In this document: positions 21-45,319 of the stretch, in pieces
Layout of the letters: every line of letters begins with the position of its first letter
How positions within the stretch are numbered: position 1 is the stretch's first letter
Source of the DNA: an uncultured Ruminiclostridium sp.
GTDB lineage: Bacteria; Bacillota; Clostridia; Oscillospirales; Ruminococcaceae
DNA: 61,409 nt
Direction: 5' to 3'
Assembly (NCBI GenBank): GCA_947623915.1
Contig: CANQIB010000015.1
Location: 1 to 61,409, forward strand
Notes under the pieces: model-generated
The model's input: only the letters and a program-made list of their open reading frames with translations
Told to the model about the DNA's origin: nothing
Database searches by the model: none
Position numbers and translations under genes: made by a program

Positions 21-46
21 GAAAAAACAGCGTATTTACGCTGTTT
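21..46 (-). terminator. Rho-independent terminator at the window edge
   Basis: Read on the minus strand this is an inverted repeat with 10-bp arms (AAACAGCGTA) and a two-base loop followed by a run of T. The stop codon of the giant ICE methylase-helicase lies inside the hairpin. It looks like a real intrinsic terminator, which is unexpected in the middle of a helicase gene and points to a rearrangement. Confidence 0.7.
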
Positions 47-3000
47 GAAGCTGTTGTGAAGGTGTTGCGTAGGGCGTTCCGGTTGCAAACACCGTACCAC
101 GACCGCCCGTAATCTCATCAAGATAGCGGCACTTCATAAAAAGGTCGCTGGATTTTTGCGCTTCGGTCTGTGCGATACCGCCGACATTCCTCATTTTTGT
201 ATAGAGGAAAAGGTTCTTGTAATAGTGGCTCTCATCAATGAAAAGCCTGTCCACACCAAGTTCCTCAAAGGTCACAACATCGTCCTTTTTCGACTGGTCG
301 TTGAGCTTATCGAGCTTCTGTTTAACGGATTTTTTCGTGCGCTCCAACTGCTTGACCGAGAAGTTATCTCCATGATTTCTTTTCAGGTCTGCAATGCCGT
401 TGGTGACTTCTTCAAGCTGCTGTTCAAGGATGGCTCTCTGCCGTTCAATGCTCATCGGGATTTTCTCAAACTGAGAATGCCCGATGATGATAGCGTCGTA
501 GTCCCCGGTTGCAATTCGACCGCAGAACCTTTTGCGGTTTTTGGTTTCAAAGTCCTTTTTCGTAGCCACCAAAATATTTGCGGACGGATAGAGCTGCAAG
601 AACTCCGACGCCCATTGCTCGGTGAGGTGATTCGGGACTACGAACAGCGATTTACTGCATAATCCGAGCCGTTTCGACTCCATAGCAGCCGCCGTCATTT
701 CAAAGGTTTTGCCTGCGCCGACGGCGTGTGCAAGGAGCGTATTGCCGCCGTAAAGGATATGCGCCACCGCATTTCTTTGGTGTTCCCGAAGTTCAATTTC
801 GGGGTTCATACCGTTAAAGGTAATATGGCTTCCGTCGTACTCACGGGGACGAATACTGTTGAACTTTTCGTTGTAGAGCTTGCATAGTCTTTCTCTGCGC
901 TCAGGATCAGACCATATCCAGTCCTGAAAGCCCTGCTTAATAAGCTCCTGCTTTGCCTGAGCGATAGCAGTTTCCTTTTTATTCAGGATTGCTTTCTTTT
1001 TGCCGTCTGCATCTTCCTCATAATCGAAGATACGCACATCCTTCAGGTTCAGCGTTTCCTCGATAATCTTGTAAGCATTGATACGGCTTGTGCCGTAGGT
1101 GCTGTACGCTTTGACATTTCCTCGGTCGTAGGATTTGCCCTCGATATTCCATTCTCCCGTGTACTCGGAAAAATGGATTTTGATGTTCCATTGTGCATAT
1201 CTCGGCGTTCCCAAGAACTCAAACACAAACTGCTCGACAATCTCAGGCGGAAGCCAAGTCGCACCGAGACGGACGGAAATCTCACTTGCCGTCAGGTCTT
1301 TCGGCTGCACCTTTTGGAGCGCTTCCACATTGATACTGTATTCTTCGGGTGAAAGCTGTGCCGATTTCTTTGCCCAGGCGAGCTTCTCACGGACATTGCC
1401 GGAGAGGTATTCGTCAGCCATAAGATACTTTGCTTCGGTGCTGTTCCCGTACCCGTACATCGGGTTTAAGAAGATAACACCTTTAAGGTCGGCAAAGATT
1501 TCTTCCTCGGTTTTGCCGCTAAGCTGACACATATATTCCATATCAATACAGGCTTTTTCGCCCATAGATACGGCAAGTGCTTCGCTCGAAGTGTCTACCG
1601 AAGTAACAGGGGTATGGGGTTTAATTGTTCTCTTAAAGAACATATCCGCTTTCTTTTCCAGAGTCCCGTCATCGCCCAAGACTTCAAGAGCCGAGAGCAA
1701 AGAGAACGAGCTGTCCTGTGAGAAAGCAGAAGAATTGGCACGGCTGTTTATAAGACCGTACTTCGCCGTAAAGGTATCATAGAGGCTGTTTAGCTTTGCC
1801 TGTTCCTCCTTGATTGCCGAGTCAGGATAATCTTCGGTCTGCAACTCAATCAGGTTTCTGACACAGTCACGGATCGCAATCATACCCTTAATGCGGTTTT
1901 CTGCGGTGGCAGAAACATCAACGGGAGCCATTCGGCTGTTTTCACGGAAATAAATTTTGCCGTCCACAAGCGTATAGGAAAAGTTTCTCACGGTCGGATC
2001 GGCAGGAATGGAATTATCTTCTTCGGTGAGTTCATCTTCCACTTCATAAGCCGTAATCTCACCGTGAATGTTTGCAACGGCTTCACTGAGCTGCTCTGCA
2101 AGGTCAGCGCCCTCATACGGTACACAGGAGGGTTCGGGACCGAAACGCCCCGATACCATTTTCATCTCACCGAGTATCATTTCGGGATGCTCTACAAAGT
2201 AACTGTTCATCGCAATGCCGTTTTCGTCTGTACCAAGATGCACCCAATCAGGCTCAATATCTACAATGCGGTCACGCTTTTGTAAAATGAGAATATCCGA
2301 AACGACTTCCGTTCCGGCATTACCCTTAAAGGTGTTGTTCGGCAGACGGATAGCGCCCAGCAGGTCGGCTCTCTGTGCGATATACTTGCGGACTGCGGGA
2401 TTTTCCTTGTCCATCGTTCCTTTGCTCGTGATAAGCGCCATAACGCCGCCCGGTCGAAGTTTATCAAGGGACTTTGCAAAGAAGTAGTCGTGGATCAGGA
2501 ACTTGTGCTTGTCATATCTCTTGTCGGGAACTTTGAAATCCCCGAAAGGAACATTGCCCACAACGGCGTCAAAGAAACTGTCGGGGAGATTTGCTTCCTC
2601 AAAGCCTTGTGCGGCAATAGAGGTCTTTTGGTAGAGTTGCTGTGCGATACCCGCCGAAACAGTGTCAAGCTCCACGCCGTAAATCTTACTTTCCCTCATT
2701 GACTCCGGCAGCATACCGATAAAATGACCGATACCGCAGGACGGCTCCAAGATATTTCCCTCACGGAAACCTAACTGCTCCATAGCCTTATATACGGCTT
2801 TAATAACCGTAGGCGGAGTGTAAAAGGCAGTCAATGTGCTTTCTCTTACAGAGTCGTATTCTTCAGGTGTCAGGATGTTTTTAAGCATTGCGTACTCGGT
2901 GTGCCAAGCTCCTGCTCGTTCGTCAAAGGCTTCGGGAATACCGCCCCAACCGACATATCTCGACAAGATTTTCTGCTCATCAGGTGTGGCAAATCGGTTT

Positions 3001-6000
3001 TCCTCCTGACATCTTTTCAAGACCGTAATCGCCGCATAGTTGCGGTGGAAACGCTCTTTTTTGTTTACCTCCGTAATCTCGTTGTTGGCAAGGTCAAAAT
3101 TGTGTCGCTCGGACATTGGAATTTCAGGGTGCAGGTCAAAGGATTGCACCTTGCTTTTCTTTGGCTGCTCCCAAGCAGGAATAACGGGGGCAGAAGCCTT
3201 TTCCACACGCTCAAGTTCTTCTTCGGACAGGTAAACAAGGTCATCAAAGGAAAGGTACTTCAGACCTCGACCGGTCATATCCTCAAGACTGTCATACTGT
3301 TCGGTGCGGATAACCGTACCGTCAACAAGGGTTTCAATCTTGAAGTCTACAAGGTTGACATTCGCCTGTATTTCGTGCTTATCATCTTCGGTGGTTGTGT
3401 ATGCCACATTGACTTCGGAAAGGTTAGAGTAGTCCGCACCCTCGTCACGCTCAAATTCCTCTCGACAGTATTCGTCAATAATCTCCTTTGCAATATCAAG
3501 GGAAGATTTCAAGTACGGACTGTCGATAATCTCAACGCTCTGCGGTTGAGGATCAAGCTGAGAGATAAAGTCCTGCGGAATAGTCGTTCCGTCCCTGTCC
3601 TTATACAGAACAATTTTCATCGGAACGCCGTAGTAATTTTCTTCCTTAATGTCCTTTTCAAACTGATAGGGACTTGTGTATTCGATGCTCTCACGAACAC
3701 GCCCGTCCGTATGAAGGTAATCAATTCTGCCGATAGGCTTTGACTGTACCGGAGCTTCCTTGTTCGTAGAAACAATGGAAAGAACCTTGCGCTCGCTGCC
3801 GTCAACGGTTGAAACCGCAAGGTCAAAACCTCTGTCGGTCAGCATATTCATATAGGTTTCGAGGGTGTGCTGCGGGAAGCCCACCATAGGAACTCTCTCG
3901 CTGTCGCTTATCGCACGGGAGGTCATCACAAGGTCAAGAGCTTCAGCAACCTTTTGTGCGTCCTCGCCATAGGCTTCAAAGAAATCGCCAACCTGATACA
4001 AAACAAGGCTGTCGGGATTTTCGGCTTTCACCGCAAGATAACTTCTATACGGCTCTCGCACTCGGTTGTCCTCAACAGGAACGCCGTTATGCTCGGATAG
4101 TTCCGTAAAGTCCTTCAAGAGTTCATCACGGATACCAAGAACGCCGCCGTTATCTTCAAAGACAAAGGCTTCTTCCACAAGGAATTTGTAGAACTCCTGA
4201 CCGTGCCACTCGTTGTCCATACTGTCGGTTGCGATAAGTTCATCACCGTCGAAGTCCAACTCAACATCATCAATTTTCAGGGCGGAGAGAACATCATAGA
4301 GGATTTCTGTTTCACGGTCATAAACCGGCAATGCGTTCGGCTCATTCTGCCCAGCCATTCTGTTAAGTTCTGCTTGATGTTCCGCTTCAAATTGCTGAAT
4401 ATCCTTGTGGATTTTGAGAATGTTTTCGGGTGTGAACTCGGTATAGTCGCAGTCCATCTCATAGTCGTTTTCCGCTTCCATAAAGAAAGGCGTGTTGATG
4501 TCAGCCAAAAACTGATCCGACATTTCTTCAAGTTCGGCAACAAACCTATCCGTGTTTTCGGGATGATTCGCAATATCATACTGCTCGATGAGTTCTTCAA
4601 AAACAGTGAAGCTCAAATCACCTGAGACATACTGACCACCGGCATTTGCGTCGGGATTGAAATATATCCAATGAACAAGGTCGTTTCCGCTATCCAAGGA
4701 TATTCTCACCTTTGTGTTGTCCGTGATTTCTTCGGCTGGTAAAACCTTTACTTTCAGGTGGTCGTTCATCGGGTTTTCCTGAACCTTTTGGTCGAACTCG
4801 GCTCTTGTCATTTCCTTATTGAACAATGGGAACTGCGTATCATAGAGCATTACCCGGTCGTTGTCAAAGGACAGAATTTCATACTCGTTTGCACCGATAT
4901 AGACGGTGTTGCCAAGATGATATTCATATCTTTCGTTGCTCGGTTCAGGCGCTTTCTTTTCGGGTGGTGCAGTAGAAAGGATTTCTCGCTTTCTGCGTTC
5001 CTCTGCGGCTTCGGCACGGCGAATTTCGTGTTGCTCAAGCCACTCAGGGTAGAGTTCCTTTTCTTTCGGGTTCAGGTATCTATCCATTTTGATAAGCTCA
5101 GAAATGCGCTTTTCAACCTGATTCCAATTTAGAAGCACTTTGACTTCTTCGCCGTTTGCATTCTTCGAGATTTTGATGCCTTTGCCATCGTGCTGCTCGT
5201 CAATGCCCGTTCCGGTGATAACGGGGTAAGAACCGCCCCAGCCGTATTCATTTTTCAGGAAATCCACATTTTCTTTCTTTGAAAGGCTCTTTTGGAACTG
5301 CTCATAGATGCGGAACTTTCCCTCCGACACGCCGCTTCCACGGGTAAGAACAGCGTCGATAATCTCCTGAGAAAAGGAAAAAGCAGAGGGTTTCGTTACC
5401 TCTGCTTCGTAATTGAGCATTAAGCTCATCTGCCCGTCCATAGAGGGCAAGGGTTTCATTGTGTCCTGAAGCTCGCCCATAAGACGCATTGCTTCAAAAT
5501 GTTTGGCTATCACACCCCAGTCGTAAAAGCTCTGCTTTGTACGGCTAAGATAATTACCTTCCCAAAGCTGAAGCACATTCTGATAAGTCTTGTAGCCGCC
5601 TCGTCTGCCGTCGCCCAGTATCACTTCGGTATAATCATTATTGAAAATGCCCTTGATATACTCGGTGCGCTTGTCCTCGTCGGCTACACTTTCGTAAAAT
5701 GCACGGATTTCGTCTTTGGTGGCTTTCAGGTGGGGTGTGGTTGCAAGGATTTCACGGATAGTATCATCGTGACCGAAGAACGGAAGGCTCTTGTCCTCGT
5801 TGCTTCGGTCGTAATACTCTAAGCGAAGATTACTTCCTTCATCACGATTTCCTGAACTCGGCTCTTCAGGTTGTTCATCTTCCGAACCCAGCTCATCATA
5901 TCCGTCGCTTTCAGGCTCTCGGTCAAGCCTTCCTTCGCCGCCATCTCTTTCGTCAGGCGTCCCTCCATTTCGGTCGCCGTCTGTTCGATCTGCGTCAGAT

Positions 6001-7004
6001 GCTCGCTCAGCTTGCAGCTCGTCAGGAGATTGTAGTACAGCACCTTGCGGTTCTCTTTCAGGTACTTCGCTCTCATTCGGGAGTACCGTCCCATCGGCGC
6101 TTCCGGCTGTTCCGGCAGCTCCAAATTGGGCAGTCTGTAATCGCCCTGCATCGTGTATGTCAGCTCGTTCATTTTGTGGACTCCTTTCTGTGTTTTGATT
6201 TCTGCCTATATTGTAATCAGGCTTTCTGTTTTCCGCAATTATGCGATTTTGCCTTTCAAGGGACATCACTGTTTTTGCAATTTCGGTAAGTCCCATTTCG
6301 GCAATGTCGCTGGTGGCAAAGCCCAGGGCATTAAGCGTACCGGGCGTATTGAAATTGATAATATCCTCAAAGTCCTCACGCTCGAAATAGTCCTCCGTAT
6401 CAATGCCGAGCCGTTCCATCATCATATATGCCACGCTGTTGGTAACAACTTTTCTGTATATGGAGGAAATATTGTCATCGTCCAGTTCCTCCAAGAAGCT
6501 GTCGTTTACAGAGTATAGCAAATCACGGGTATAATCGGGAAGATTGTCCTCGGCGGCATTTTGTGCCGCACTCATAACTGCGTCCGCAAGGCTTTGGCTG
6601 TTATCCAGCGTTCCGAAGGTGCTTTCAAGGGTTTCGGTGATTTCCTGCTCATATTCCGGCTTCATTTCCCAAATAGGAACGGGGCGGGAATACTTGCTCG
6701 GATGGGTGTCGGAAATGTCAAAGTAATGGATAAGACGCTGGCGGCTTCTGCTTGCATCGTCAAAGACCGCAATACCGGTTGCACCTCGATTAACCCATCT
6801 TCCGAAAGTGCCGTTCCAACGCTCAATTTCAAGAACTGCGGTAGCGTCCGGTCGCTGTGCGAACACCAAAAGCTGTTCATCAAAACGCAGCTTATAGTTT
6901 CGGCAGGCAGAAGTCAAAAAGGCTTCCCAATTCTGCGGAGAGGATACCACCGTCTTGCAGGTACGGTCGTACAGTTCGGAAATAAGGTCATATTTACGAG
7001 CCAT
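36..7004 (-). CDS. Giant ICE methylase-helicase, truncated in its SNF2 domain
   Basis: This 2322-residue protein belongs to the very large polyvalent proteins of Tn1549-like conjugative elements. In order there is an N-terminal region starting MARKYDLISELYD, a MutS-I-like segment near the middle (LVLYQVGDFFEAYGEDA), an N6-adenine methyltransferase-like domain from about residue 1400 (EPSCGIGHFIG, then NVPFGDF in place of NPPY), and a SNF2-type helicase starting near residue 2095 (Walker A AVGAGKT, DESH box, motif III FATGTP). The protein stops about 11 residues after TGTP, so motifs IV to VI are missing; family members normally continue for several hundred residues. The ATG follows AAGGAGG. 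It is the last visible gene of the ICE operon on this strand. Its likely role is DNA processing or anti-restriction during transfer; as it stands the helicase is probably inactive. Confidence 0.85.
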   Translation of the reverse strand: MARKYDLISELYDRTCKTVVSSPQNWEAFLTSACRNYKLRFDEQLLVFAQRPDATAVLEIERWNGTFGRWVNRGATGIAVFDDASRSRQRLIHYFDISDTHPSKYSRPVPIWEMKPEYEQEITETLESTFGTLDNSQSLADAVMSAAQNAAEDNLPDYTRDLLYSVNDSFLEELDDDNISSIYRKVVTNSVAYMMMERLGIDTEDYFEREDFEDIINFNTPGTLNALGFATSDIAEMGLTEIAKTVMSLERQNRIIAENRKPDYNIGRNQNTERSPQNERADIHDAGRLQTAQFGAAGTAGSADGTVLPNESEVPEREPQGAVLQSPDELQAERASDADRTDGDRNGGTPDERDGGEGRLDREPESDGYDELGSEDEQPEEPSSGNRDEGSNLRLEYYDRSNEDKSLPFFGHDDTIREILATTPHLKATKDEIRAFYESVADEDKRTEYIKGIFNNDYTEVILGDGRRGGYKTYQNVLQLWEGNYLSRTKQSFYDWGVIAKHFEAMRLMGELQDTMKPLPSMDGQMSLMLNYEAEVTKPSAFSFSQEIIDAVLTRGSGVSEGKFRIYEQFQKSLSKKENVDFLKNEYGWGGSYPVITGTGIDEQHDGKGIKISKNANGEEVKVLLNWNQVEKRISELIKMDRYLNPKEKELYPEWLEQHEIRRAEAAEERRKREILSTAPPEKKAPEPSNERYEYHLGNTVYIGANEYEILSFDNDRVMLYDTQFPLFNKEMTRAEFDQKVQENPMNDHLKVKVLPAEEITDNTKVRISLDSGNDLVHWIYFNPDANAGGQYVSGDLSFTVFEELIEQYDIANHPENTDRFVAELEEMSDQFLADINTPFFMEAENDYEMDCDYTEFTPENILKIHKDIQQFEAEHQAELNRMAGQNEPNALPVYDRETEILYDVLSALKIDDVELDFDGDELIATDSMDNEWHGQEFYKFLVEEAFVFEDNGGVLGIRDELLKDFTELSEHNGVPVEDNRVREPYRSYLAVKAENPDSLVLYQVGDFFEAYGEDAQKVAEALDLVMTSRAISDSERVPMVGFPQHTLETYMNMLTDRGFDLAVSTVDGSERKVLSIVSTNKEAPVQSKPIGRIDYLHTDGRVRESIEYTSPYQFEKDIKEENYYGVPMKIVLYKDRDGTTIPQDFISQLDPQPQSVEIIDSPYLKSSLDIAKEIIDEYCREEFERDEGADYSNLSEVNVAYTTTEDDKHEIQANVNLVDFKIETLVDGTVIRTEQYDSLEDMTGRGLKYLSFDDLVYLSEEELERVEKASAPVIPAWEQPKKSKVQSFDLHPEIPMSERHNFDLANNEITEVNKKERFHRNYAAITVLKRCQEENRFATPDEQKILSRYVGWGGIPEAFDERAGAWHTEYAMLKNILTPEEYDSVRESTLTAFYTPPTVIKAVYKAMEQLGFREGNILEPSCGIGHFIGMLPESMRESKIYGVELDTVSAGIAQQLYQKTSIAAQGFEEANLPDSFFDAVVGNVPFGDFKVPDKRYDKHKFLIHDYFFAKSLDKLRPGGVMALITSKGTMDKENPAVRKYIAQRADLLGAIRLPNNTFKGNAGTEVVSDILILQKRDRIVDIEPDWVHLGTDENGIAMNSYFVEHPEMILGEMKMVSGRFGPEPSCVPYEGADLAEQLSEAVANIHGEITAYEVEDELTEEDNSIPADPTVRNFSYTLVDGKIYFRENSRMAPVDVSATAENRIKGMIAIRDCVRNLIELQTEDYPDSAIKEEQAKLNSLYDTFTAKYGLINSRANSSAFSQDSSFSLLSALEVLGDDGTLEKKADMFFKRTIKPHTPVTSVDTSSEALAVSMGEKACIDMEYMCQLSGKTEEEIFADLKGVIFLNPMYGYGNSTEAKYLMADEYLSGNVREKLAWAKKSAQLSPEEYSINVEALQKVQPKDLTASEISVRLGATWLPPEIVEQFVFEFLGTPRYAQWNIKIHFSEYTGEWNIEGKSYDRGNVKAYSTYGTSRINAYKIIEETLNLKDVRIFDYEEDADGKKKAILNKKETAIAQAKQELIKQGFQDWIWSDPERRERLCKLYNEKFNSIRPREYDGSHITFNGMNPEIELREHQRNAVAHILYGGNTLLAHAVGAGKTFEMTAAAMESKRLGLCSKSLFVVPNHLTEQWASEFLQLYPSANILVATKKDFETKNRKRFCGRIATGDYDAIIIGHSQFEKIPMSIERQRAILEQQLEEVTNGIADLKRNHGDNFSVKQLERTKKSVKQKLDKLNDQSKKDDVVTFEELGVDRLFIDESHYYKNLFLYTKMRNVGGIAQTEAQKSSDLFMKCRYLDEITGGRGTVFATGTPYATPSQQLQTA

Positions 7005-9693: not shown

Positions 9694-9786
9694 TTATTTC
9701 TTCTTTCTGTTTTTCACCTGAAGAAAGATAAAGCCGCCAATGATAAAGGCGACCAAAACGATTGCGATAATTGTTTTCGGCTCCAT
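9694..9786 (-). CDS. 30-residue membrane protein coupled to the adhesin gene
   Basis: A short reading frame encodes MEPKTIIAIVLVAFIIGG followed by a few residues and a basic KNRKKK tail: one membrane helix with a positively charged cytoplasmic end. Its ATG overlaps the adhesin stop codon as TAATG, the classic arrangement for translational coupling. The frame is followed directly by an intrinsic terminator. This supports a real gene in spite of its size. The role is unknown; it could assist export or anchoring of the adhesin. Confidence 0.55.
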   Translation of the reverse strand: MEPKTIIAIVLVAFIIGGFIFLQVKNRKKK

Positions 9787-12700
9787 TATTCAGAATCCTC
9801 CTTTTTCTTTTTTCTAACGCCTGCGTATACTGTCACGCCGATACCGGCAGCGGAAGCACCGAGCAGGGCAAGCCACAAGCCGAGCTTGCTGTTATCTCCG
9901 GTTTTCGGAGTGTCAATGACAACATTGTGCATTTCCACAATCGTGGTGGAGTCGGTCATAACATTTGCCTTTTTATCGGCAGGTCGTGAATACGGTGCAG
10001 ATACCTCATCGGCTACCTCGGACACGGTGTATTCACCGATGCGGAGTCCCTCGATGAAGATTTCGCCATTCTCATCGGTTTTGAGCGTTACATCATAGCC
10101 GTTTGCTCCGGTAATACGGAAGGAGAAGCCTTCCACCTTGCCGTTAGAAGATGTCTTGACGATTTTCAGGTTGCCTTTCATCGCTTCGTTGATAAAGCCG
10201 ACGCCTGCCTTGTTCTCTACGGAATAGGTCATACCGTCCGTTTCAATGAATACGGGATAAATGCCTGTATCAAGCAGGAAGCCGTCCGGCGCTTTGGTTT
10301 CCTTTATGAGATAGTGACCGTAAAGCAGGTCTTTCATCTCATAAATTCCTGCTTCGCTTTCGGTAAGAGTGCCGATCAGCGTATCACCGTCATCCGGCTT
10401 TCCGTCAGCGTTGTTGTCCTGATATACTTCAAAGGTCGCTCCGGTCAACTTGTTGTCGGGGAAGTCTGCGTCCACTTTGGTAAGTGTGATATTGCCACGA
10501 ACAAACTTGTTTACGATTTCGATTTCGACAACCTGTTCATTTTCGGCAATGTTTACTTCATATACGGTTTCGTTCAGGACAAAGCCTGTCGGCTGCTCGA
10601 TTTCTCTTACATACCAAATACCGAACGGAATCTGCTCAAAAGAAAAGCTACCGTCTTTTTGGGAGGTAGCAGTCATCAAAGCGTTTTCCTTTGTAAATTC
10701 GGTATCGTTGTACTTAAAGAGTCCGATCAGCGCACCGCCGAGAGGTTCGCCGTTTTCATTGACCTTCCTGCCGGAAACAGAGCCGTAGATAAGGTCGTTT
10801 TCGATTGCTTCGCCGTCATTGACCGCAAGCTGAACCTTTGCGGTTTCCTGTCCCGCATACTCAAAGGTTACGGGGTACTTGGCATCCGAGAGGATATAAT
10901 GCTCATCGGTGGCAAGCTCTTTTACATAGTAGCCGCCCATAGGCAAGTCGGTTTTAACCGTACCGTTTCCGCTTTCATCAAGGGTAACGATCTCAATTAA
11001 ACCGTCAGCGGGGATAGAAGTACCGCTTGCAGATACAAGCTCCTCTGCGGCAAACAGACCGAAGCTGATGTTTTTTAGTTCACCGTTCTGTCCGATACCG
11101 AAAAGGTCGCTTGTTTCAAGCGTTTTCTTCAAGCTGATTTCAACCTTCTGTCTTTCATTCACGAAAGAGGTGGCAGTTTCCGTCACGGAAATATTCTGTC
11201 CGGCATACACAAGCTCTGCGGTATGAATTTCATCATTCAACACCATACCGTAAGGTGCTTTGATTTCTTTGACTTCATATTTGCCGAGATAGAGTTCACG
11301 GCTCTTGGCAAGTCCGTCTTTTCCCGTAGTAACGGTATCCACAACCTCGCCCTTTGTGAAGCGTACTGTTCCGTCAGGAGTAATAATATCCTCGGCTGCA
11401 CGGATTTCATATACTGCGTCCGAAAGTCCGGCGATTTCATAAATCGGCTGATAGATTACCTCGGCATCCTCCGAGCCGCTTACGCTTACACCGTAGAACA
11501 CTTCGCCGGTTTTCTCTACGGTGATTGTGCCTTTCTGTGCCATATTCGGCTTATCCACTTTTATCACTGTAACCCCGCTTTCTTCGGTAGCGTTATCCTG
11601 CGTTACATCGAAGTACACAGGAGTGCTGTCGAGAACATATCCGTAGGGAGCCTGAACCTCCACAAGAGAATATCCCTTGCCGTATTCCAGCTTCTCCGGT
11701 GTCACAAGACAGCCGTTTGCGTCGGTGTAAAAGGTGTCGATTGTTGTCGGAGTCGGGTAGGTAAAGGACATTGTAACAAGATTTCCTGTCGGATCGTAAA
11801 TCTGAAAGCCTGCTCCGGCATAAGGAATGGTCTTGCCGCTTTCTGCGTCCACCTTGACCACCTTGATATAGCTTTCAAAGTTTGCATTGTTGATAAGGTA
11901 ACGGTAGGTCTGTCCGTTTTGAGCAATGAACACATCAAAGTCCTTCATCAGCTCACGGCCTTCCCAGCCGGAGGTCTGATGAACGGTATATACGCCGTAA
12001 GGCATATCCTTTGTCTGTCCGAAGCCGTTTTCGTCGCAGACGATAATATCTCTCTCATCTTCTTCGGAAGCGGTATAGCTTCCTGCGGACTTGAGGTAGA
12101 TTTCAAAGGTTGCACCGCTTTCGGGCGTTTCAATCTTGGTTTTTCCATCGTCGGTATGCTTGATGATGGCGATATTGCCTTTCATAACCTGTTCGGTAAC
12201 ATCGTTTGCTGTCTGATTGTGTTCCATGGTATAAAGCTGCGGTTCAGCACCGACCTTATGGATTGTGGTGTCAAGCAGATAGCCCTCGGACGGAGTGATT
12301 TCACGGATTGTCCAGTCATTGTCGCAGACATATTCCTTTGTGGTGAACTGCCCGTTCTGATCCGTAACATATTTGTCTACAAGGGTTTCGCCCTTATAAA
12401 TGCCGTAAACTGCTCCGGCAAGAGAAGCATCGCCCTGGGCGCTGCCTTCCTCACGGTCGCTCTTTGTCACGGTCACGGTAAACTTTTTGAGAATGTTTGT
12501 GAAATTGCGGGTAGTAACCTCTTTCCACTTAACAGGTGCGGTCTGATTTGCAGGCACGACATAACGGATAGCCGTATCCACTTCCTCGATGGTGTAGGGC
12601 ATTGTGCCTGAAATCAGGACATCCTTAAAGGTAGCAACACCGTTCTTATCTGTCACGGCATACTCATCAACGGAAATACCGGAAAGAGATGTGCCGTAAA

Positions 12701-14006
12701 GGTGGAAGGTAACGCCCTCCACAAGATTATCCTCGGAGGATTTGATTACCTGAAGGTCGCCACGCTTGAGTGTATTGCTGAATGTGACCGTTGAGGTATT
12801 TCCCGATACAATCGTAACCCTCTGCACATTCTGCGGCTCATACTTTTCCTCGGTCAGCTCCGTAACGGTATATACGCCGGGCATAAGTTCAATATCCACC
12901 GTGCCGTCCGCCTTTGTGGTGACGGTCTGATTAACGCCGTTTCCGGCAATGTTGAACTTAATGTTTGCCACCTTTCCGTCCTCGGAGTGCTTCAAGATAT
13001 GACCGACTCCGGTGGTTTCCGTCTTGATTTTGAGATAGAATACGACCGGATCTTCCGCACCCGACATCATTGTCTGCTTTCCGGGGTATCCCCAAATAAG
13101 GAAGTTGCCGTCGATACCGGGTACATTCTTTTGCGCCGTAACACTAACGGCGGTTTCAATCATCTTGTTTGAAGTAAAGGTGTATTTGTTGCCGCTTCTT
13201 GAAACGGTAATACCGCTTGCGCTGAACTTAATATCCGACAGCGTATTATTCGTATCGGTCAGCGTAAGACTGTAATTATCTGCCGCCTGATTGTATTTCA
13301 GCGTATAGGTGGTTGCAGAGCTGCTCTTATTGGAAGCAAAGCTCGGAATGGTTGCGTGGTTCTGCATCTGCGAAAGAAGCCAGTTGTAGCACTTCTCGGC
13401 AGGTCTGCCCTTGATACCCTTGAAGTAAGTGTCGGCAGGAACCCCGTAGCTGTTTGCTTTGAGAGTAGTCGGAGAAGTACGAAGCTGCTGCTGATACTCC
13501 CAAAGAATAATCTGTGTCGCCATAGAGAAATCGTCCTCGTTTGTTCCGCTGATCGGAGCCGTTTTACCCGGACGCCAGCCGTACACGGAGGTCAGCATAA
13601 TTCCGTACTGTGCCGTTGTCGGCAGGTTCTGAAAATATGAGCTGTTTGTTCCGCTTTTGCTGTCATAAGTTCCTCCGGCATTATATGGAATACCGGACTC
13701 GATACACATAATCTGTCGGGAACCGCTGCTGTCCTTAATCATCAGCTTGGTTCTCGAATTGCCTGCACTTTGAGTGTGCAGACTTTCATTGCCGTTTGCA
13801 TCATAGGCGATATACTGATAGGTTGAGGGAGAATAATACATTTCTCCGTCTGCACTCACATACTTATCACCGTAATATGCGTTTACTGTCTTTCCTTCCT
13901 CTGCTGTAAAGGCGAAGGCGGAAAGCGGCAGAGACATAATGCACATAACGTCACACAGGAGTGCGGCAGTGATGCGCTTTCCTTTGGATTTTGCAAAATT
14001 TTTCAT
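9786..14006 (-). CDS. Thioester-domain, multi-Cna-B surface adhesin (SpaA-like) with sortase signal
   Basis: 1406 residues. An N-terminal signal peptide ends near SLPLSAFAF. Next comes a thioester-type domain, with Cys101 in MCIESG and Gln165 in MATQIILW as the expected internal thioester pair, known in related adhesins to react with host surface amines. About ten Cna-B/SpaA-type repeats follow, many ending in the ..YTVTE or ..YLIKE strand that carries the isopeptide Glu. A TPKTG sortase motif at about residue 1366 is followed by a hydrophobic helix and a KKKK tail. It sits between ICE parAB and the conjugation genes and probably promotes mating-pair contact or host attachment. No sortase gene is in the window. 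The start is preceded by AAAGGACGG. Confidence 0.92.
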   Translation of the reverse strand: MKNFAKSKGKRITAALLCDVMCIMSLPLSAFAFTAEEGKTVNAYYGDKYVSADGEMYYSPSTYQYIAYDANGNESLHTQSAGNSRTKLMIKDSSGSRQIMCIESGIPYNAGGTYDSKSGTNSSYFQNLPTTAQYGIMLTSVYGWRPGKTAPISGTNEDDFSMATQIILWEYQQQLRTSPTTLKANSYGVPADTYFKGIKGRPAEKCYNWLLSQMQNHATIPSFASNKSSSATTYTLKYNQAADNYSLTLTDTNNTLSDIKFSASGITVSRSGNKYTFTSNKMIETAVSVTAQKNVPGIDGNFLIWGYPGKQTMMSGAEDPVVFYLKIKTETTGVGHILKHSEDGKVANIKFNIAGNGVNQTVTTKADGTVDIELMPGVYTVTELTEEKYEPQNVQRVTIVSGNTSTVTFSNTLKRGDLQVIKSSEDNLVEGVTFHLYGTSLSGISVDEYAVTDKNGVATFKDVLISGTMPYTIEEVDTAIRYVVPANQTAPVKWKEVTTRNFTNILKKFTVTVTKSDREEGSAQGDASLAGAVYGIYKGETLVDKYVTDQNGQFTTKEYVCDNDWTIREITPSEGYLLDTTIHKVGAEPQLYTMEHNQTANDVTEQVMKGNIAIIKHTDDGKTKIETPESGATFEIYLKSAGSYTASEEDERDIIVCDENGFGQTKDMPYGVYTVHQTSGWEGRELMKDFDVFIAQNGQTYRYLINNANFESYIKVVKVDAESGKTIPYAGAGFQIYDPTGNLVTMSFTYPTPTTIDTFYTDANGCLVTPEKLEYGKGYSLVEVQAPYGYVLDSTPVYFDVTQDNATEESGVTVIKVDKPNMAQKGTITVEKTGEVFYGVSVSGSEDAEVIYQPIYEIAGLSDAVYEIRAAEDIITPDGTVRFTKGEVVDTVTTGKDGLAKSRELYLGKYEVKEIKAPYGMVLNDEIHTAELVYAGQNISVTETATSFVNERQKVEISLKKTLETSDLFGIGQNGELKNISFGLFAAEELVSASGTSIPADGLIEIVTLDESGNGTVKTDLPMGGYYVKELATDEHYILSDAKYPVTFEYAGQETAKVQLAVNDGEAIENDLIYGSVSGRKVNENGEPLGGALIGLFKYNDTEFTKENALMTATSQKDGSFSFEQIPFGIWYVREIEQPTGFVLNETVYEVNIAENEQVVEIEIVNKFVRGNITLTKVDADFPDNKLTGATFEVYQDNNADGKPDDGDTLIGTLTESEAGIYEMKDLLYGHYLIKETKAPDGFLLDTGIYPVFIETDGMTYSVENKAGVGFINEAMKGNLKIVKTSSNGKVEGFSFRITGANGYDVTLKTDENGEIFIEGLRIGEYTVSEVADEVSAPYSRPADKKANVMTDSTTIVEMHNVVIDTPKTGDNSKLGLWLALLGASAAGIGVTVYAGVRKKKKEDSE

Positions 14007-41378: not shown

Positions 41379-42695
41379 TCAGCAGCCGAGCAGCGCCTTA
41401 AAATGCCTGCCGCGTTCCTCGAAATTTTTGTAAAAGCCGTAGCTTGCCGCGGCAGGAGAAAGTATGCAGCGCACCGAGGTGTATTTTTTGGCAAGCTCCA
41501 CCGCCTGCTCCATATTTTCGGCGTACAGCTTTCTGACGTTCGGGTCGGTCACGGTGTCGGCGGCTCTTTTGCCGCTGTCCGGCAGGATAATAAGGTTTTT
41601 GAGCCCGTATCCCGAATTCAAAAAATCTCCCAACGGCTGATAAGATATCCCTCTGTCCATTCCGCCTATTATCAGCGTATCGGTATCGGGGTAGGCTTTA
41701 AGCGCCGCCACCGCCGTTTGAGGGGTAGTGCTTATGCTGTCGTTGATATACTCCGCCCCGTCGATGGTACAGACATATTCCAGCCGATGTTCAAGCGGGG
41801 AAAATTCCGGCAGCGAATCTATGCAGGTGTCGGTATCGCAGCCGACGGTAGCCGCCGCGCAAAGCGCCGCCGCGATGTTGTACAGGTTATGCTCTCCGCG
41901 CAGGCGGGTATTTATCCTTTCGGAGGGGTAAAACCTGTCGAAAAGGAATATTCCGCCGTCCCTTGTACCTATCTGCCCGCCGTTTCCCGCAAGCACCTTT
42001 GTAACGCCGTCACGGGCGTTTATCACGCCGTCAAGCTCCGCGGCGAGCAGCAGCGTATCGCCGCTTTTTTGAAAGCGGCAGATATTCGCTTTGGCGGCGC
42101 GGTATTCCTCAAATCCGACATAATGGTCCAGATGTTCTGGGAAAACGTTCAGCAGCACCGCCGTTTTCGGGGACGCCTTGACATATTCCAACTGATGACA
42201 GGACAGCTCGCAGACCACCGCGTCCATATCGGCAAACTCCTCCGCCCGCTCCAGCGGCGGCACGCCGATATTTCCTATCAGCGCGGACTTTTTGCCGCAG
42301 GCAGACAAAAAATGATATATCAGACCCGACACGGTGGATTTTCCCTTTGTTCCCGTCACGCCTACGACCGGCACAGGACAAAAGCGCAAAAACAGATCCG
42401 CCTGACAGGTCAGCTTTGCCTTGACGGCGTCGGAAACGTCGTTTTTAAGCCCTATGCCCGGCGCTTTCATTATAATGTCATATCCCTCGCAATGCGAAAG
42501 ATAATCCTCTCCGCAGAAGACCTCACAGTCGGGGCACTCCGTCAACGGCTGCCTGTCGGCTATCGCGTGGTTTTTATGCCCGAGAGTCTCCAACAGCCGC
42601 AGCGTGCTTTTCCCCTCTCTGCCAAATCCCAGTATCAGCACGCTTTTCCCGTCAAAAAAATCGCGCAGCTTTGAAATCATATCCCTGTTTTCCAT
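41379..42695 (-). CDS. murD: MurD-family UDP-MurNAc-L-Ala glutamate ligase (probably MurD2 type)
   Basis: 438 residues of the Mur ligase family. An N-terminal domain (VLILGFGREGKSTLRLLETL) is followed by the ATP loop VTGTKGKSTVSGL, the central ligase motif NVFPEHLDHYVGF, and the C-terminal domain ending ASYGFYKNFEERG. It adds glutamate to UDP-MurNAc-L-alanine. The gene begins two bases after the murL stop. In Xanthomonas the partner MurD2 adds L-Glu, which MurL then epimerises; by context this copy probably uses L-Glu. Sequence alone does not prove the isomer used. Confidence 0.9.
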   Translation of the reverse strand: MENRDMISKLRDFFDGKSVLILGFGREGKSTLRLLETLGHKNHAIADRQPLTECPDCEVFCGEDYLSHCEGYDIIMKAPGIGLKNDVSDAVKAKLTCQADLFLRFCPVPVVGVTGTKGKSTVSGLIYHFLSACGKKSALIGNIGVPPLERAEEFADMDAVVCELSCHQLEYVKASPKTAVLLNVFPEHLDHYVGFEEYRAAKANICRFQKSGDTLLLAAELDGVINARDGVTKVLAGNGGQIGTRDGGIFLFDRFYPSERINTRLRGEHNLYNIAAALCAAATVGCDTDTCIDSLPEFSPLEHRLEYVCTIDGAEYINDSISTTPQTAVAALKAYPDTDTLIIGGMDRGISYQPLGDFLNSGYGLKNLIILPDSGKRAADTVTDPNVRKLYAENMEQAVELAKKYTSVRCILSPAAASYGFYKNFEERGRHFKALLGC

Positions 42696-42697
42696 TT

Positions 42698-44032
42698 TCA
42701 GCTCCGTTTTTCCGTGGCTCGGCGCAGCAGTTCCAGCAGCCGCTCCGGCACAAAATTATCGTTATCGAAAAAGTTCTCCGTTTGCTCCGCGTCGGCGGGA
42801 GGGTCGGGAAATTCAGCGATGTACCGTTCCAGCAGATAAGGTAGCTTTTCTCTCTCTCTGCGCTTTGCGGCGCGGTACAGCGCGTAACGCACCTCCGACT
42901 TTGTTCCGACGCACTCGAACGGCTTATCCACGCCCTCGCGGATAAGTCCGTTGAACATTTCGGTCAGCTTTTCGTCTTTGAGCATATCCCTGCCGAATAT
43001 CCCTATCAGCTTTTCGTCGTCAAGAAACGCCGCCAGCAGAATATAAACATACAGGCACTTTGCGCAGTTTGCGCACCAACTGTCCGTTTTTGAGCCGAGG
43101 TTGCAGCTTTGGAACACCGAAAAATACTTTTCCTGCCGCACGAACAGCTCGGCTATGCGGTACTCGTTGAGCGGGCGCAGCAGGCTGAAATATTCCGGCC
43201 CGCCGCCGAGGTATTTTTGGGAATATTCGCGAAAATCCCGTTCAAACTCGGTGCTTTTGCTGTACTGGTGATTGACGTATCTGCCCTCGACGTAGCTTTC
43301 GTTGGCGCTGCTCTCGTTGGACAGCGCGATGTACCTTCTCCCCGTAAAATACGCGAAAAGGCAGGAGGAGAACGCGACTATCGCCGAAAACGGCGTATGC
43401 CCGTTAAGATATCCCTCGGCGTTAAGCGCGAGCAGCTCTCGGTCTATCGTTCGGCGCACTCCGACTATGCCGTCCGTGCCGAAGCCCGCGACGGCGGCGC
43501 AGTTGAGCGTAGCGCCGCGAGGATTTATGATATAGCACAGCGTATCGTCGCGGTAGTCCTTGAGCAGCTCCAAGGTAACTACGCTGTCTTTCCCGCCTCC
43601 CACCGGCACCAAAAATCCCGAAAGGGGCTTGTCTGACCTGTAGGCGGGGGCAGAGCCGTCGTCCGGCACTATGTTCATAAAGCTGTCGACGTCCGACGCT
43701 ATGCCGTTTTTGTAAAAAAATTCGCCCAAGCCGTTAAAATACAGCTTTTTCCACCATTCACACTGAGCGGGAGAAAGGCTGCCGCAGCATACCCTGACGG
43801 TAGGCGGGCAGACGCATTTCCAGTAGCTGACCAGCTCCGCCATGCCTATATTGAATATCATGTATTCCGCAAGCGGGGTGACTTTCTCGCCGAGGTATCC
43901 CTCACACTTCCATGACGGGTAAAAATGATGACCGTCTATCGAAAAATGAAAGGAAAAACCGTCCGCGTCTATCTTATATCCATGATAAATAAATTCCTTA
44001 TGCTTTTGTCTGAGTGTTTCGTAAAGGCTCAT
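42698..44032 (-). CDS. murL: UDP-MurNAc-L-Ala-L-Glu epimerase MurL
   Basis: 444 residues. A PP-loop-like ATP site (VPVGGGKDSVVTLELLK, GGGKDS at 145-150) and a cysteine cluster near the C-terminus (WCANCAKCLYV) are the main landmarks. The overall sequence fits the MurL family, which activates the terminal L-Glu of UDP-MurNAc-L-Ala-L-Glu with ATP and epimerises it to D-Glu. The gene sits 12 bases after tmcAL and two bases before a Mur ligase of the MurD type. Family assignment is by recall of motifs; a different PP-loop enzyme is the main alternative. Confidence 0.75.
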   Translation of the reverse strand: MSLYETLRQKHKEFIYHGYKIDADGFSFHFSIDGHHFYPSWKCEGYLGEKVTPLAEYMIFNIGMAELVSYWKCVCPPTVRVCCGSLSPAQCEWWKKLYFNGLGEFFYKNGIASDVDSFMNIVPDDGSAPAYRSDKPLSGFLVPVGGGKDSVVTLELLKDYRDDTLCYIINPRGATLNCAAVAGFGTDGIVGVRRTIDRELLALNAEGYLNGHTPFSAIVAFSSCLFAYFTGRRYIALSNESSANESYVEGRYVNHQYSKSTEFERDFREYSQKYLGGGPEYFSLLRPLNEYRIAELFVRQEKYFSVFQSCNLGSKTDSWCANCAKCLYVYILLAAFLDDEKLIGIFGRDMLKDEKLTEMFNGLIREGVDKPFECVGTKSEVRYALYRAAKRREREKLPYLLERYIAEFPDPPADAEQTENFFDNDNFVPERLLELLRRATEKRS

Positions 44033-44044
44033 ATTTCCTCCAAA

Positions 44045-45193
44045 TCATGGCAGTATCACCGGCTTTGCGGTAAGATCGCCGCCGCAGGGTCTTTTTCGGG
44101 AGAACGCCAGCGCGTAAATATCCCGCGCCGCGCTTTGCAGCGTTGCCTGACGCGCCGCCGCCGGACTTTTCTCGGAAAGCGCAAAAAGCGACGTATCTAT
44201 CGGAACGGAACAGCTCGACGCGGCAAGTATCTCCCTGCCTCTGCCGTTCATTCCCAGCACTCGGATATACGCGGGCGGCTCTTCCGCCGACTTCCGCGTG
44301 ATACCGATAAACGCGCACATGACCGTCCTTTTTACCCATGAAAGCGTACAGCGCTTGGACTTTATCGAGGCGTAAAGCTCCTCAAGGCTCGCGGACTCCC
44401 TTACCGCGCGGTATATGCGGTTCTCCGCACCGTTGGATATATCCGGCAGCTTGGCAAAGTCCTCGGCGGTAAGCGTTCTCAGCTTTGCGAGAACGGCGAC
44501 CTCCAGCCTTTTAATATCGGTCGTCTCTCCGATATTATACGGCAGAAATCCCGATACGTCAAGTCCCTCGGACAGCATTTCCCGTATTTCCCCCGCCGAG
44601 CGGAAAGTCCCGCCGCCCTTTTCGCCGTGCCGCGCGCCGTTTCTCTTTACGGCGAACGGCTTTATGCGGCTGTTCGACCTTTTTATCGCTCGGATATACT
44701 CTATCCCCAGAATATCGTTGGGGGAAGCCAGCGCCGTAAGCATTCTTTCGTCCGAGCCGCTCAAAGCCTTTGTCAACGCCGAGGGATAGCTAAGCCCCTT
44801 GCTCATATACTCCGACAGCTTTTCCTTGTCGGCGTTTTCCGCAGCGGCAGCCGCGGCGCAAAGCAGCTCGGCATCTCCCGACTCGCTGCCGAAGCTGAGC
44901 ATATCCGTACAGCCCAGCATATCCAGCAGTCCCACGCCGCGGCGGGCGAACCTCTCCGCGCTGCCCAAAGCGTAAGCCGCGGGCAGCTCTATCACCAGAT
45001 CTGCTCCGTTTTTCAGCGCGGCGGCGGTCCGTTCAAACTTATCCGTCACGGCTATGCCGCCGCGCTGGACGTAATCCCCGCTCATCACGCATACGATACC
45101 GTCCGCCGCGCACAGCTCGCGGGTCTTTTGTATATGATAAGCGTGCCCGTTGTGAAACGGGTCGTACTCTGCGATTATCCCGACTGTTCTCAT
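44045..45193 (-). CDS. tmcAL: tRNA(Met) cytidine acetate ligase TmcAL (YlbM family)
   Basis: About 382 residues starting MRTVGIIAEYDPFHNGHAYH; this ATG follows AAGGAAG, and an upstream extension is disfavoured. The nucleotidyltransferase motif PFHNGH and MSGDYVQRGG are clear. The enzyme activates acetate with ATP to acetylate the wobble cytidine of elongator tRNA-Met. Acetate kinase lies divergently next door, which may be chance. It leads the murL-murD unit. Confidence 0.9.
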   Translation of the reverse strand: MRTVGIIAEYDPFHNGHAYHIQKTRELCAADGIVCVMSGDYVQRGGIAVTDKFERTAAALKNGADLVIELPAAYALGSAERFARRGVGLLDMLGCTDMLSFGSESGDAELLCAAAAAAENADKEKLSEYMSKGLSYPSALTKALSGSDERMLTALASPNDILGIEYIRAIKRSNSRIKPFAVKRNGARHGEKGGGTFRSAGEIREMLSEGLDVSGFLPYNIGETTDIKRLEVAVLAKLRTLTAEDFAKLPDISNGAENRIYRAVRESASLEELYASIKSKRCTLSWVKRTVMCAFIGITRKSAEEPPAYIRVLGMNGRGREILAASSCSVPIDTSLFALSEKSPAAARQATLQSAARDIYALAFSRKRPCGGDLTAKPVILP

Positions 45194-45319
45194 AATACTT
45201 CCTTTTCCGTGCGCGTTCATTACGCCGACGCACATTTTCATTATACGCCCGAAAAAATCAAACGGCGATAAAGTCCCGACGGTTTTTTCCCGATAAAAGG
45301 CGATTTTGCGATAAACCCC

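What the first reader, a model, noticed from the sequence alone, without database searches (positions are those of the whole stretch)
41379..44032. A murL-murD pair in a Firmicute: D-Glu made on the peptidoglycan precursor
Seen: a PP-loop-like protein (GGGKDS, cysteine cluster) directly followed by a MurD-family ligase two bases later. Known: in Xanthomonas, MurD2 adds L-Glu to UDP-MurNAc-L-Ala and MurL epimerises that terminal residue with ATP, replacing glutamate racemase. Inferred: this organism may use the same route, outside the group where it was described. Since the ligase is the only Mur gene here, the genome may carry another murD in its division cluster.
Basis: partly seen in the sequence, partly recalled or inferred. 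Interest (0 to 1): 0.75.

Follow-up and report, generated by a model that had tools for sequence, protein, structure and literature searches.

The report
MurL-MurD2 cell-wall pathway in Clostridia
This Clostridia genome lacks the usual enzymes for making free D-glutamate and instead carries a two-gene cassette that appears to attach ordinary L-glutamate to the cell-wall precursor and flip it there, a route described so far in proteobacteria and actinobacteria and here traced into Bacillota and Bacteroidota.

Summary
Confirmed. The 444-aa gene is a MurL homologue (NCBIfam MurL model, 236 bits, E 6e-70; 33% identical to Xanthomonas MurL). Two bases downstream lies a MurD with MurD2-type glutamate-site residues (E187, R348). 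In the same order MurL occurs in 23 of 247 genomes; 0 of 23 has MurI above cut-off, against 198 of 224 MurL-negative genomes (p 4e-19). murD follows murL in 23 of 23, fused into one gene in two. The E. coli K348 position is Arg in 95 of 95 readable MurL-linked MurDs and Lys in 27 of 27 sampled MurDs from MurL-negative genomes of the order. Named relatives include Ruminococcus flavefaciens, Pseudobutyrivibrio xylanivorans and Bacteroidetes MAGs. A confident AlphaFold model (pLDDT 94) puts MurL in the QueC/QatC PP-loop fold, which fits its ATP-to-AMP chemistry; the QueC and QatC papers found do not mention MurL. Enzyme activity is not shown, and the deep MurD tree is not decisive. The route is known; the phyla, fusion and fold assignment appear new.

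The parts
42698..44032 (-). [quoted passage not shown]
   Evidence: NCBIfam NF041275 236 bits, E 6.4e-70, below that model's cut-off of 700; 33% identity to X. sacchari MurL over 381 aligned columns, E 1e-49; AlphaFold mean pLDDT 93.9
43583..43600 (-). PP-loop motif GGGKDS, residues 145-150 (ATP pyrophosphate-binding loop)
   Evidence: GGGKDS in 85 of 85 aligned MurLs (A2) and in X. sacchari MurL; GGGRDS in the Pseudonocardia homologue
43055..43105 (-). cysteine cluster C310-x9-C320-x2-C323-x2-C326, resembling the QueC zinc site
   Evidence: the four Cys are invariant in A1 and A2; hhalign sets the region on the E. coli QueC cysteine cluster, weakly (probability 12.5, E 0.0023)
41379..42695 (-). 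murD2: UDP-MurNAc-L-Ala ligase predicted to use L-Glu, 438 aa
   Evidence: TIGR01087 285 bits, over cut-off; groups with MurL-linked and Xanthomonad MurDs
42135..42137 (-). E187 of the ligase (E. coli D182 position; X. oryzae MurD2 E197)
   Evidence: role of E197 from PMC8788868
41652..41654 (-). R348 of the ligase (E. coli K348 position; X. oryzae MurD2 R358)
   Evidence: R in 95 of 95 readable MurL-linked MurDs, K in 27 of 27 sampled MurDs of MurL-negative genomes of the order
44037..44041 (-). GGAGG ribosome-binding site of murL, between the stop of the upstream gene and the murL start
   Evidence: sequence
44045..45241 (-). upstream gene, HIGH nucleotidyltransferase (TmcAL-like), 12 bases before murL; probably co-transcribed (inference)
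   Evidence: PF05636 359 bits

Best explanation
The pair is a MurL-MurD2 cassette that supplies the D-Glu of peptidoglycan. [quoted passage not shown] Shown here: the genes, their homology, the absence of murI, D-amino-acid transaminase and a second murD, the co-distribution, the substrate-site residues and the predicted fold. Inferred: the two reactions in this organism, adenylation at the PP-loop, and zinc at the cysteine cluster. The ATP-to-AMP epimerisation is published for Xanthomonas MurL, where adenylation is the authors' hypothesis (PMC8788868).
Against: No activity assay. The protein scores 236 bits where NCBI's Xanthomonadales equivalog asks for 700. At the D182 position 7 of 23 order and 5 of 72 readable named linked MurDs keep Asp. 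Arg at 348 also occurs in 2 of 11 canonical references (Paenibacillus, Bacillus), and S. mutans MurD, with Arg there, uses D-Glu (PMC8788868). AU tests do not reject trees that separate linked MurDs from Xanthomonad MurD2 (p 0.27, 0.14; 0.21, 0.21 with fewer references). 5 of 23 order and 7 of 30 named MurL genomes have weak MurI-like hits. One MurL genome, G012, has a split transaminase-like match (74 and 37 bits in one 343-aa frame). 26 of 224 MurL-negative genomes also lack MurI over cut-off, so that absence alone is not diagnostic. Five named loci have murL with no murD in about 3-4 kb. Foldseek's global TM to QatC is low (0.36-0.38), and the cysteine spacing varies (9-12 in A2, 15 in X. 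sacchari).
Confidence: 0.93

Rival explanations
1. Canonical route: the ligase is an ordinary D-Glu-adding MurD, D-Glu comes from an unrecognised racemase or transaminase, and the PP-loop neighbour does something else (for example a QueC- or QatC-like modification).
For: The murD equivalog cut-off is met. 26 of 224 MurL-negative genomes of the order lack MurI over cut-off and must get D-Glu somehow; of 18 checked, 7 have a near-full-length D-amino-acid-transaminase-like protein of 197-225 bits. One MurL genome, G012, has a weaker split match of this kind.
Against: In the window's genome the only transaminase hit is branched-chain, and none of the 23 MurL genomes has a match like those of the 7; no murI; R348 with an acidic residue at 187; tight linkage and fusion with MurL; no PADLOC match for either protein.
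Confidence: 0.04
2. The MurL homologue acts on a different carboxylate (for example free glutamate or another UDP-MurNAc peptide), and D-Glu in the wall arises from that reaction.
For: Only about 33% identity to Xanthomonas MurL; the QueC fold has been repurposed for varied substrates (PMC13329287, passages).
Against: 51 columns are invariant among 18 of the 23 order MurLs, X. sacchari MurL and the Pseudonocardia homologue, and the partner ligase has the MurD2-type site. In Xanthomonas no free-Glu racemase activity was found (PMC8788868).
Confidence: 0.03

Closest known systems
MurL-MurD2 pathway of Xanthomonas oryzae (XOO_1319/XOO_1320); X. sacchari WP_043095708/WP_043095707 used here for comparison
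   Same: Gene order murL-murD, homology of both proteins, Glu/Arg pair at the glutamate site, lack of murI and of D-amino-acid transaminase (for X. oryzae from PMC8788868).
   Different: Only 33% and 29% identity; host is Bacillota; Tyr at the L416 position where 6 of 7 Xanthomonad MurD2s have Phe, and Ala kept at A414 where they have Pro; fused MurL-MurD2 proteins in some relatives.
QatC of qatABCD anti-phage defence (PDB 9y01, 9y02)
   Different: 11% identity; no PADLOC match; sits with a Mur ligase. QatC's own reaction is called unresolved in PMC13279940 (passages).
[quoted passage not shown]
   Different: No Pfam QueC match for the window protein; extra N- and C-terminal parts; different substrate.
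Canonical MurD (E. coli, PDB 1uag and others)
   Same: Mur ligase family; over the murD model cut-off.
   Different: Arg for Lys348 and Glu for Asp182 at the glutamate site.

Membership tests
MurL | Sequence homology to Xanthomonas MurL, with shared invariant residues | tested here: met
   NF041275 E 6.4e-70; 33% to X. sacchari MurL over 381 columns; 51 invariant columns over 20 sequences
MurL | NCBIfam Xanthomonadales equivalog cut-off (700 bits); marks that clade, not the whole family | tested here: not met
   236 bits. It is not filed in that equivalog; the claim is homologue with the same inferred function
MurL | Linked MurD2 in a genome without murI or D-amino-acid transaminase | tested here: met
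[quoted passage not shown]
   needs purified enzyme
MurD2 | Glu and Arg at the E. coli D182 and K348 positions | tested here: met
   E187 and R348
MurD2 | Groups with Xanthomonad MurD2 apart from canonical MurD | tested here: inconclusive
   SH-aLRT 98 in favour; AU does not reject alternatives, p 0.27 and 0.14
MurD2 | Uses L-Glu, not D-Glu | not testable with these tools
   needs assay
Canonical MurD (D-Glu) | Lys at the 348 position | tested here: not met
   R348; Lys348 is not universal, as 2 of 11 canonical references have Arg
QueC family (fold) | QueC-type PP-loop Rossmann-like core | tested here: met
QueC family (fold) | SGGxDS and C(x)8CxxCxxC motifs | tested here: inconclusive
   GGGKDS in 85 of 85; Cys spacing 9 in 69, 11 in 13 and 12 in 3 of 85, and 15 in X. 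sacchari MurL; zinc itself not testable here
QueC family (Pfam PF06508) | Match to the Pfam QueC model | tested here: not met
   no match for the window protein; 3 of 85 members at E up to 1, best 0.017
qatABCD defence | PADLOC match or qat partner genes | tested here: not met
   no PADLOC match for either protein at E up to 1; the neighbours examined by Pfam (TmcAL-like, Lon) are not qat genes

The most novel reading that the evidence does not exclude
MurL is an unrecognised branch of the QueC/QatC PP-loop family whose adenylated carboxylate is epimerised rather than amidated or conjugated. It is structurally closest to QatC, whose reaction is unresolved, and so offers a chemical precedent for it. 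As a cassette, sometimes one fused gene, MurL-MurD2 has displaced MurI more than once in Bacillota of the gut and occurs in Bacteroidota.
Probability: 0.7. Interest if true: 0.7.

Novelty: new member of a known kind. Interest (0 to 1): 0.6.

Why it matters
The 2021 review lists gamma- and alphaproteobacteria and rare actinobacteria as users of the route and proposes it as a narrow-spectrum drug target (PMC8788868). Its presence in Ruminococcus, Pseudobutyrivibrio, other Clostridia, Erysipelotrichaceae and Bacteroidetes MAGs means that MurL or MurD2 inhibitors could also hit gut and rumen commensals, and that lack of murI in such genomes need not be missing data. The QueC/QatC fold gives MurL, which the reviews say lacks known domains, a testable active site and mechanism, and links a cell-wall enzyme of known chemistry to a phage-defence enzyme of unknown chemistry.

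Tried and rejected
A second murD in the division cluster: rejected. The other Mur-ligase hits are MurC and MurE (over their cut-offs), a MurF-like protein (238 bits, cut-off 289), a MurT-like protein and a carboxypeptidase-MurF-like fusion. A story that murD was cut out of the mraY-ftsW slot: the slot is empty, but in the 28 MurL-negative loci of the order no mraY, ftsW, murG or murA was found within the 1.5 kb held on each side of murD (the murE hits there lie on murD itself), so no such claim is made. K319 (the Lys of NDSK) as an L-Glu marker: rejected, because Ile stands there in 27 of 27 MurDs of MurL-negative genomes too. A phylum-wide claim: rejected. In 299 genomes drawn across the phylum only the window's own MurL is full length; three other hits are fragments of 18-28 bits. 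Phage origin of MT836755.1: not supported, as the record also holds elongation-factor-like and NUDIX-like ORFs (read by eye). QueC sequences from the order for a profile comparison: PF06508 gave only weak hits there, so a single E. coli QueC was used. The original 2017 paper, looked up by a DOI from memory, is not held. Rows dropped or chosen: L064 (partial) left out of the MurD trees and the final residue table; L096 and L120 read as gaps in that table; the MurD tree used 20 of the 74 named linked MurDs and the MurL tree 29 of the 80 named loci; the MurI check used 30 of the 80.

Full report
OBSERVATION. The window holds two minus-strand genes exactly where stated, 444 aa (42698-44032) and 438 aa (41379-42695), with two bases between stop and start. 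The upstream neighbour, a HIGH nucleotidyltransferase (PF05636; the name TmcAL is recalled), ends 12 bases before murL with a GGAGG site between, so the three genes probably form one operon (inference). Downstream lies lon.

WHAT THE PROTEINS ARE. The 444-aa protein has one NCBIfam match at E up to 0.001, the MurL epimerase model, 236 bits, E 6.4e-70; that model's cut-off (700) is set for Xanthomonadales. It is 33% identical over 381 columns to the MurL of X. sacchari (WP_043095708, annotated murL, beside murD) and 33% over 330 to a Pseudonocardia plasmid homologue. In an alignment of 18 of the 23 order MurLs with these two, 51 columns are invariant, including G145-G147, D149, S150, R194, H212, N239, E240, N254-Q256, K259, S309-N311, W319, C320, C323, C326 and K370-F372. 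The protein database gives Pfam PF26298 and PF26299 for it and for the 119 other homologues listed of 8000 found; I recall these as MurL domains, but no call shows their names. The 438-aa protein is a MurD (285 bits, cut-off 212), 29% identical to X. sacchari MurD2.

GENOME TEST. The genome (2.25 Mb, 25 contigs, 99.94% complete) has no match to the glutamate racemase model TIGR00067, which rings in 10 of 14 control genomes. Its only match to the D-amino-acid transaminase model (42 bits, cut-off 277) is a branched-chain transaminase (494 bits, cut-off 307). It has one murD; the other Mur-ligase hits are MurC, MurE, a MurF-like protein (238 bits, cut-off 289), a MurT-like protein and a carboxypeptidase-MurF-like fusion. 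The MurT-like protein (Pfam MurT_C over cut-off; NCBIfam MurT 226 bits, below its cut-off of 800) suggests that the wall's D-Glu is amidated (inference).

CO-DISTRIBUTION. Of 247 genomes of the order, 23 have MurL, and 198 of 247 have MurI over cut-off. None of the 23 MurL genomes is among the 198: 18 have no MurI match and 5 (G225, G127, G142, G200, G236) have weak ones, E 1e-8 to 1e-18. The table is cut; four of the 18 are read as unmatched because they are absent from the list of matched genomes, and the 5 as below cut-off from their E-values. Of the 224 MurL-negative genomes, 198 have MurI over cut-off (Fisher p 4e-19); related genomes are not independent, so the p-value is only a guide. 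Of the other 26, I checked 18 for D-amino-acid transaminase: 7 have a near-full-length match of 197-225 bits, below the 277 cut-off. Of the 23 MurL genomes none has such a match; the nearest is G012, with two pieces of 74 and 37 bits in one 343-aa frame. So within one order MurI, probably a transaminase, and MurL look like near-exclusive alternatives; 11 of the 18 stay unexplained. Across the phylum MurL is rare: 1 of 299 (the window itself) with a full-length match, three fragments apart, while MurI passes its cut-off in 269 of 299.

NAMED RELATIVES. They include Ruminococcus flavefaciens Y1, Pseudobutyrivibrio xylanivorans DSM 14809, Clostridiales bacterium 1_7_47_FAA, Lachnospiraceae, Erysipelotrichaceae and 14 records titled Bacteroidetes, Bacteroidales, Bacteroidota or Alistipes. 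Thirty of the 80 genomes, nine of them Bacteroidota by title, were searched for MurI: 0 of 30 over cut-off, 7 with weak matches of 21-44 bits; completeness of these genomes is not told. MAG titles may be wrong, but the nine Bacteroidota rows used form one clade in the MurL tree.

LINKAGE. murD follows murL in 23 of 23 order genomes and in 74 of 80 named loci; five loci show no murD although about 3-4 kb are in hand (L084, L085, L134, L140, L151) and one stops at a contig end (L147). The 1353-base gap computed for L114 comes from an in-frame stop near the start of its MurL frame. Single-ORF MurL-MurD2 fusions of 840-911 aa occur in G012 (apparently the same contig as L093), G081 and L110. G012 stands apart from the other two in the MurL tree, so more than one fusion event is possible.

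GLUTAMATE SITE. The review reports E197 and R358 of X. oryzae MurD2, in place of E. coli D182 and K348, as stereochemical determinants: the double mutant back to Asp and Lys switched MurD2 to D-Glu (PMC8788868, parts 1 and 2 of 3 read). The E. coli numbering there omits the Met, which my alignment allowed for (one search is off by one in its labels). Signature at 182/348/416: window E/R/Y; 23 order-linked including the window, E/R/Y 16 and D/R/Y 7; 72 readable of 74 named linked, E/R/Y 66, D/R/Y 5, E/R/F 1; 7 Xanthomonad, E/R/F 6 and E/R/Y 1; 27 from MurL-negative genomes of the order, N/K/F 26 and D/K/F 1; 11 other canonical, D/K 8, N/K 1, T/R 1, A/R 1. Arg with an acidic partner thus marks all readable linked MurDs and none of the others sampled; the Asp variants show that Glu is not obligatory, and Arg alone is not diagnostic.

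TREES. In an 88-row MurD tree the 43 MurL-linked rows (Bacillota and Bacteroidota) and 7 Xanthomonad MurD2s stand on one side of a branch (SH-aLRT 98) against 38 canonical MurDs. Holding the MurDs of the window's genus and its sister genus together with the canonical MurDs of their own family is rejected (p 1.3e-5), but the deeper join with Xanthomonas is not secured: AU p 0.27 and 0.14 for two alternatives, 0.21 and 0.21 with fewer references. The genome G153, of the window's family, carries a cassette of the R. flavefaciens type in both trees, so the family seems to have gained the cassette more than once (inference).

NOVELTY. The route is known. In the library searches on MurL and MurD2 only PMC5808125 and PMC8788868 were opened; other listed papers hold one of the words a few times or less and were seen as listings only. 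The two list proteobacteria and actinobacteria, with low-similarity homologues in cyanobacteria, a fungus and an amoeba, and name neither Bacillota nor Bacteroidota as MurL holders in what I read. Two QueC-family papers found (PMC13279940, PMC13329287; passages read) do not contain the word MurL. Subscription papers, including the 2017 original, are not held, so priority is not certain.

Noticed in passing
L019 (G012) 1489-4179; L022 (G081) 253-2805; L110: MurL and MurD2 are fused into one ORF of 840-911 aa in three genomes seen here, which could pass the L-Glu intermediate directly to the epimerase.
   Followed up: partly
L084, L085, L134, L140, L151: murL with no murD found in the 3-4 kb downstream; whether these genomes carry an unlinked MurD2 was not tested.
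   Followed up: no
order genomes G124, G190, G214, G226, G232, G238 (family f11): Genomes 96-100% complete with neither MurL, nor MurI over cut-off, nor a near-full-length D-amino-acid transaminase: source of D-Glu unexplained.
   Followed up: partly
L068 3764-5164 (Pseudonocardia alni plasmid pPaSha1): A MurL homologue (annotated hypothetical) on a mobilizable plasmid with no annotated murD in the 9 kb fetched; it may act on another substrate.
   Followed up: no
L069 (MT836755.1): A record labelled Bacteriophage sp. holds a murL-murD pair with elongation-factor-like and NUDIX-like ORFs (read by eye); it looks like a bacterial contig filed as phage.
   Followed up: partly
L026 / L114 (Ruminococcus sp. 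RGIG5122, G153): The MurL reading frame has an in-frame TAG near its N-terminus; assembly error, later start or real change not resolved.
   Followed up: partly
window 36-7004 (-): A 2322-aa protein with MutS-I, Eco57I methylase and helicase domains, as on large mobile elements (that comparison is recalled).
   Followed up: no
window 9786-14006 (-): A 1406-aa protein with a thioester domain and 10 SpaA-type repeats, an adhesin-like surface architecture.
   Followed up: no
L007 1453-3690 (own genome, contig C1): A 746-aa protein joining a D-Ala-D-Ala carboxypeptidase domain to a MurF-like ligase domain.
   Followed up: partly
window MurL residues 298-342: Weak DUF6395 match over the cysteine cluster (83 of 85 MurLs at E up to 1); DUF6395 may be another relative of this fold.
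   Followed up: no
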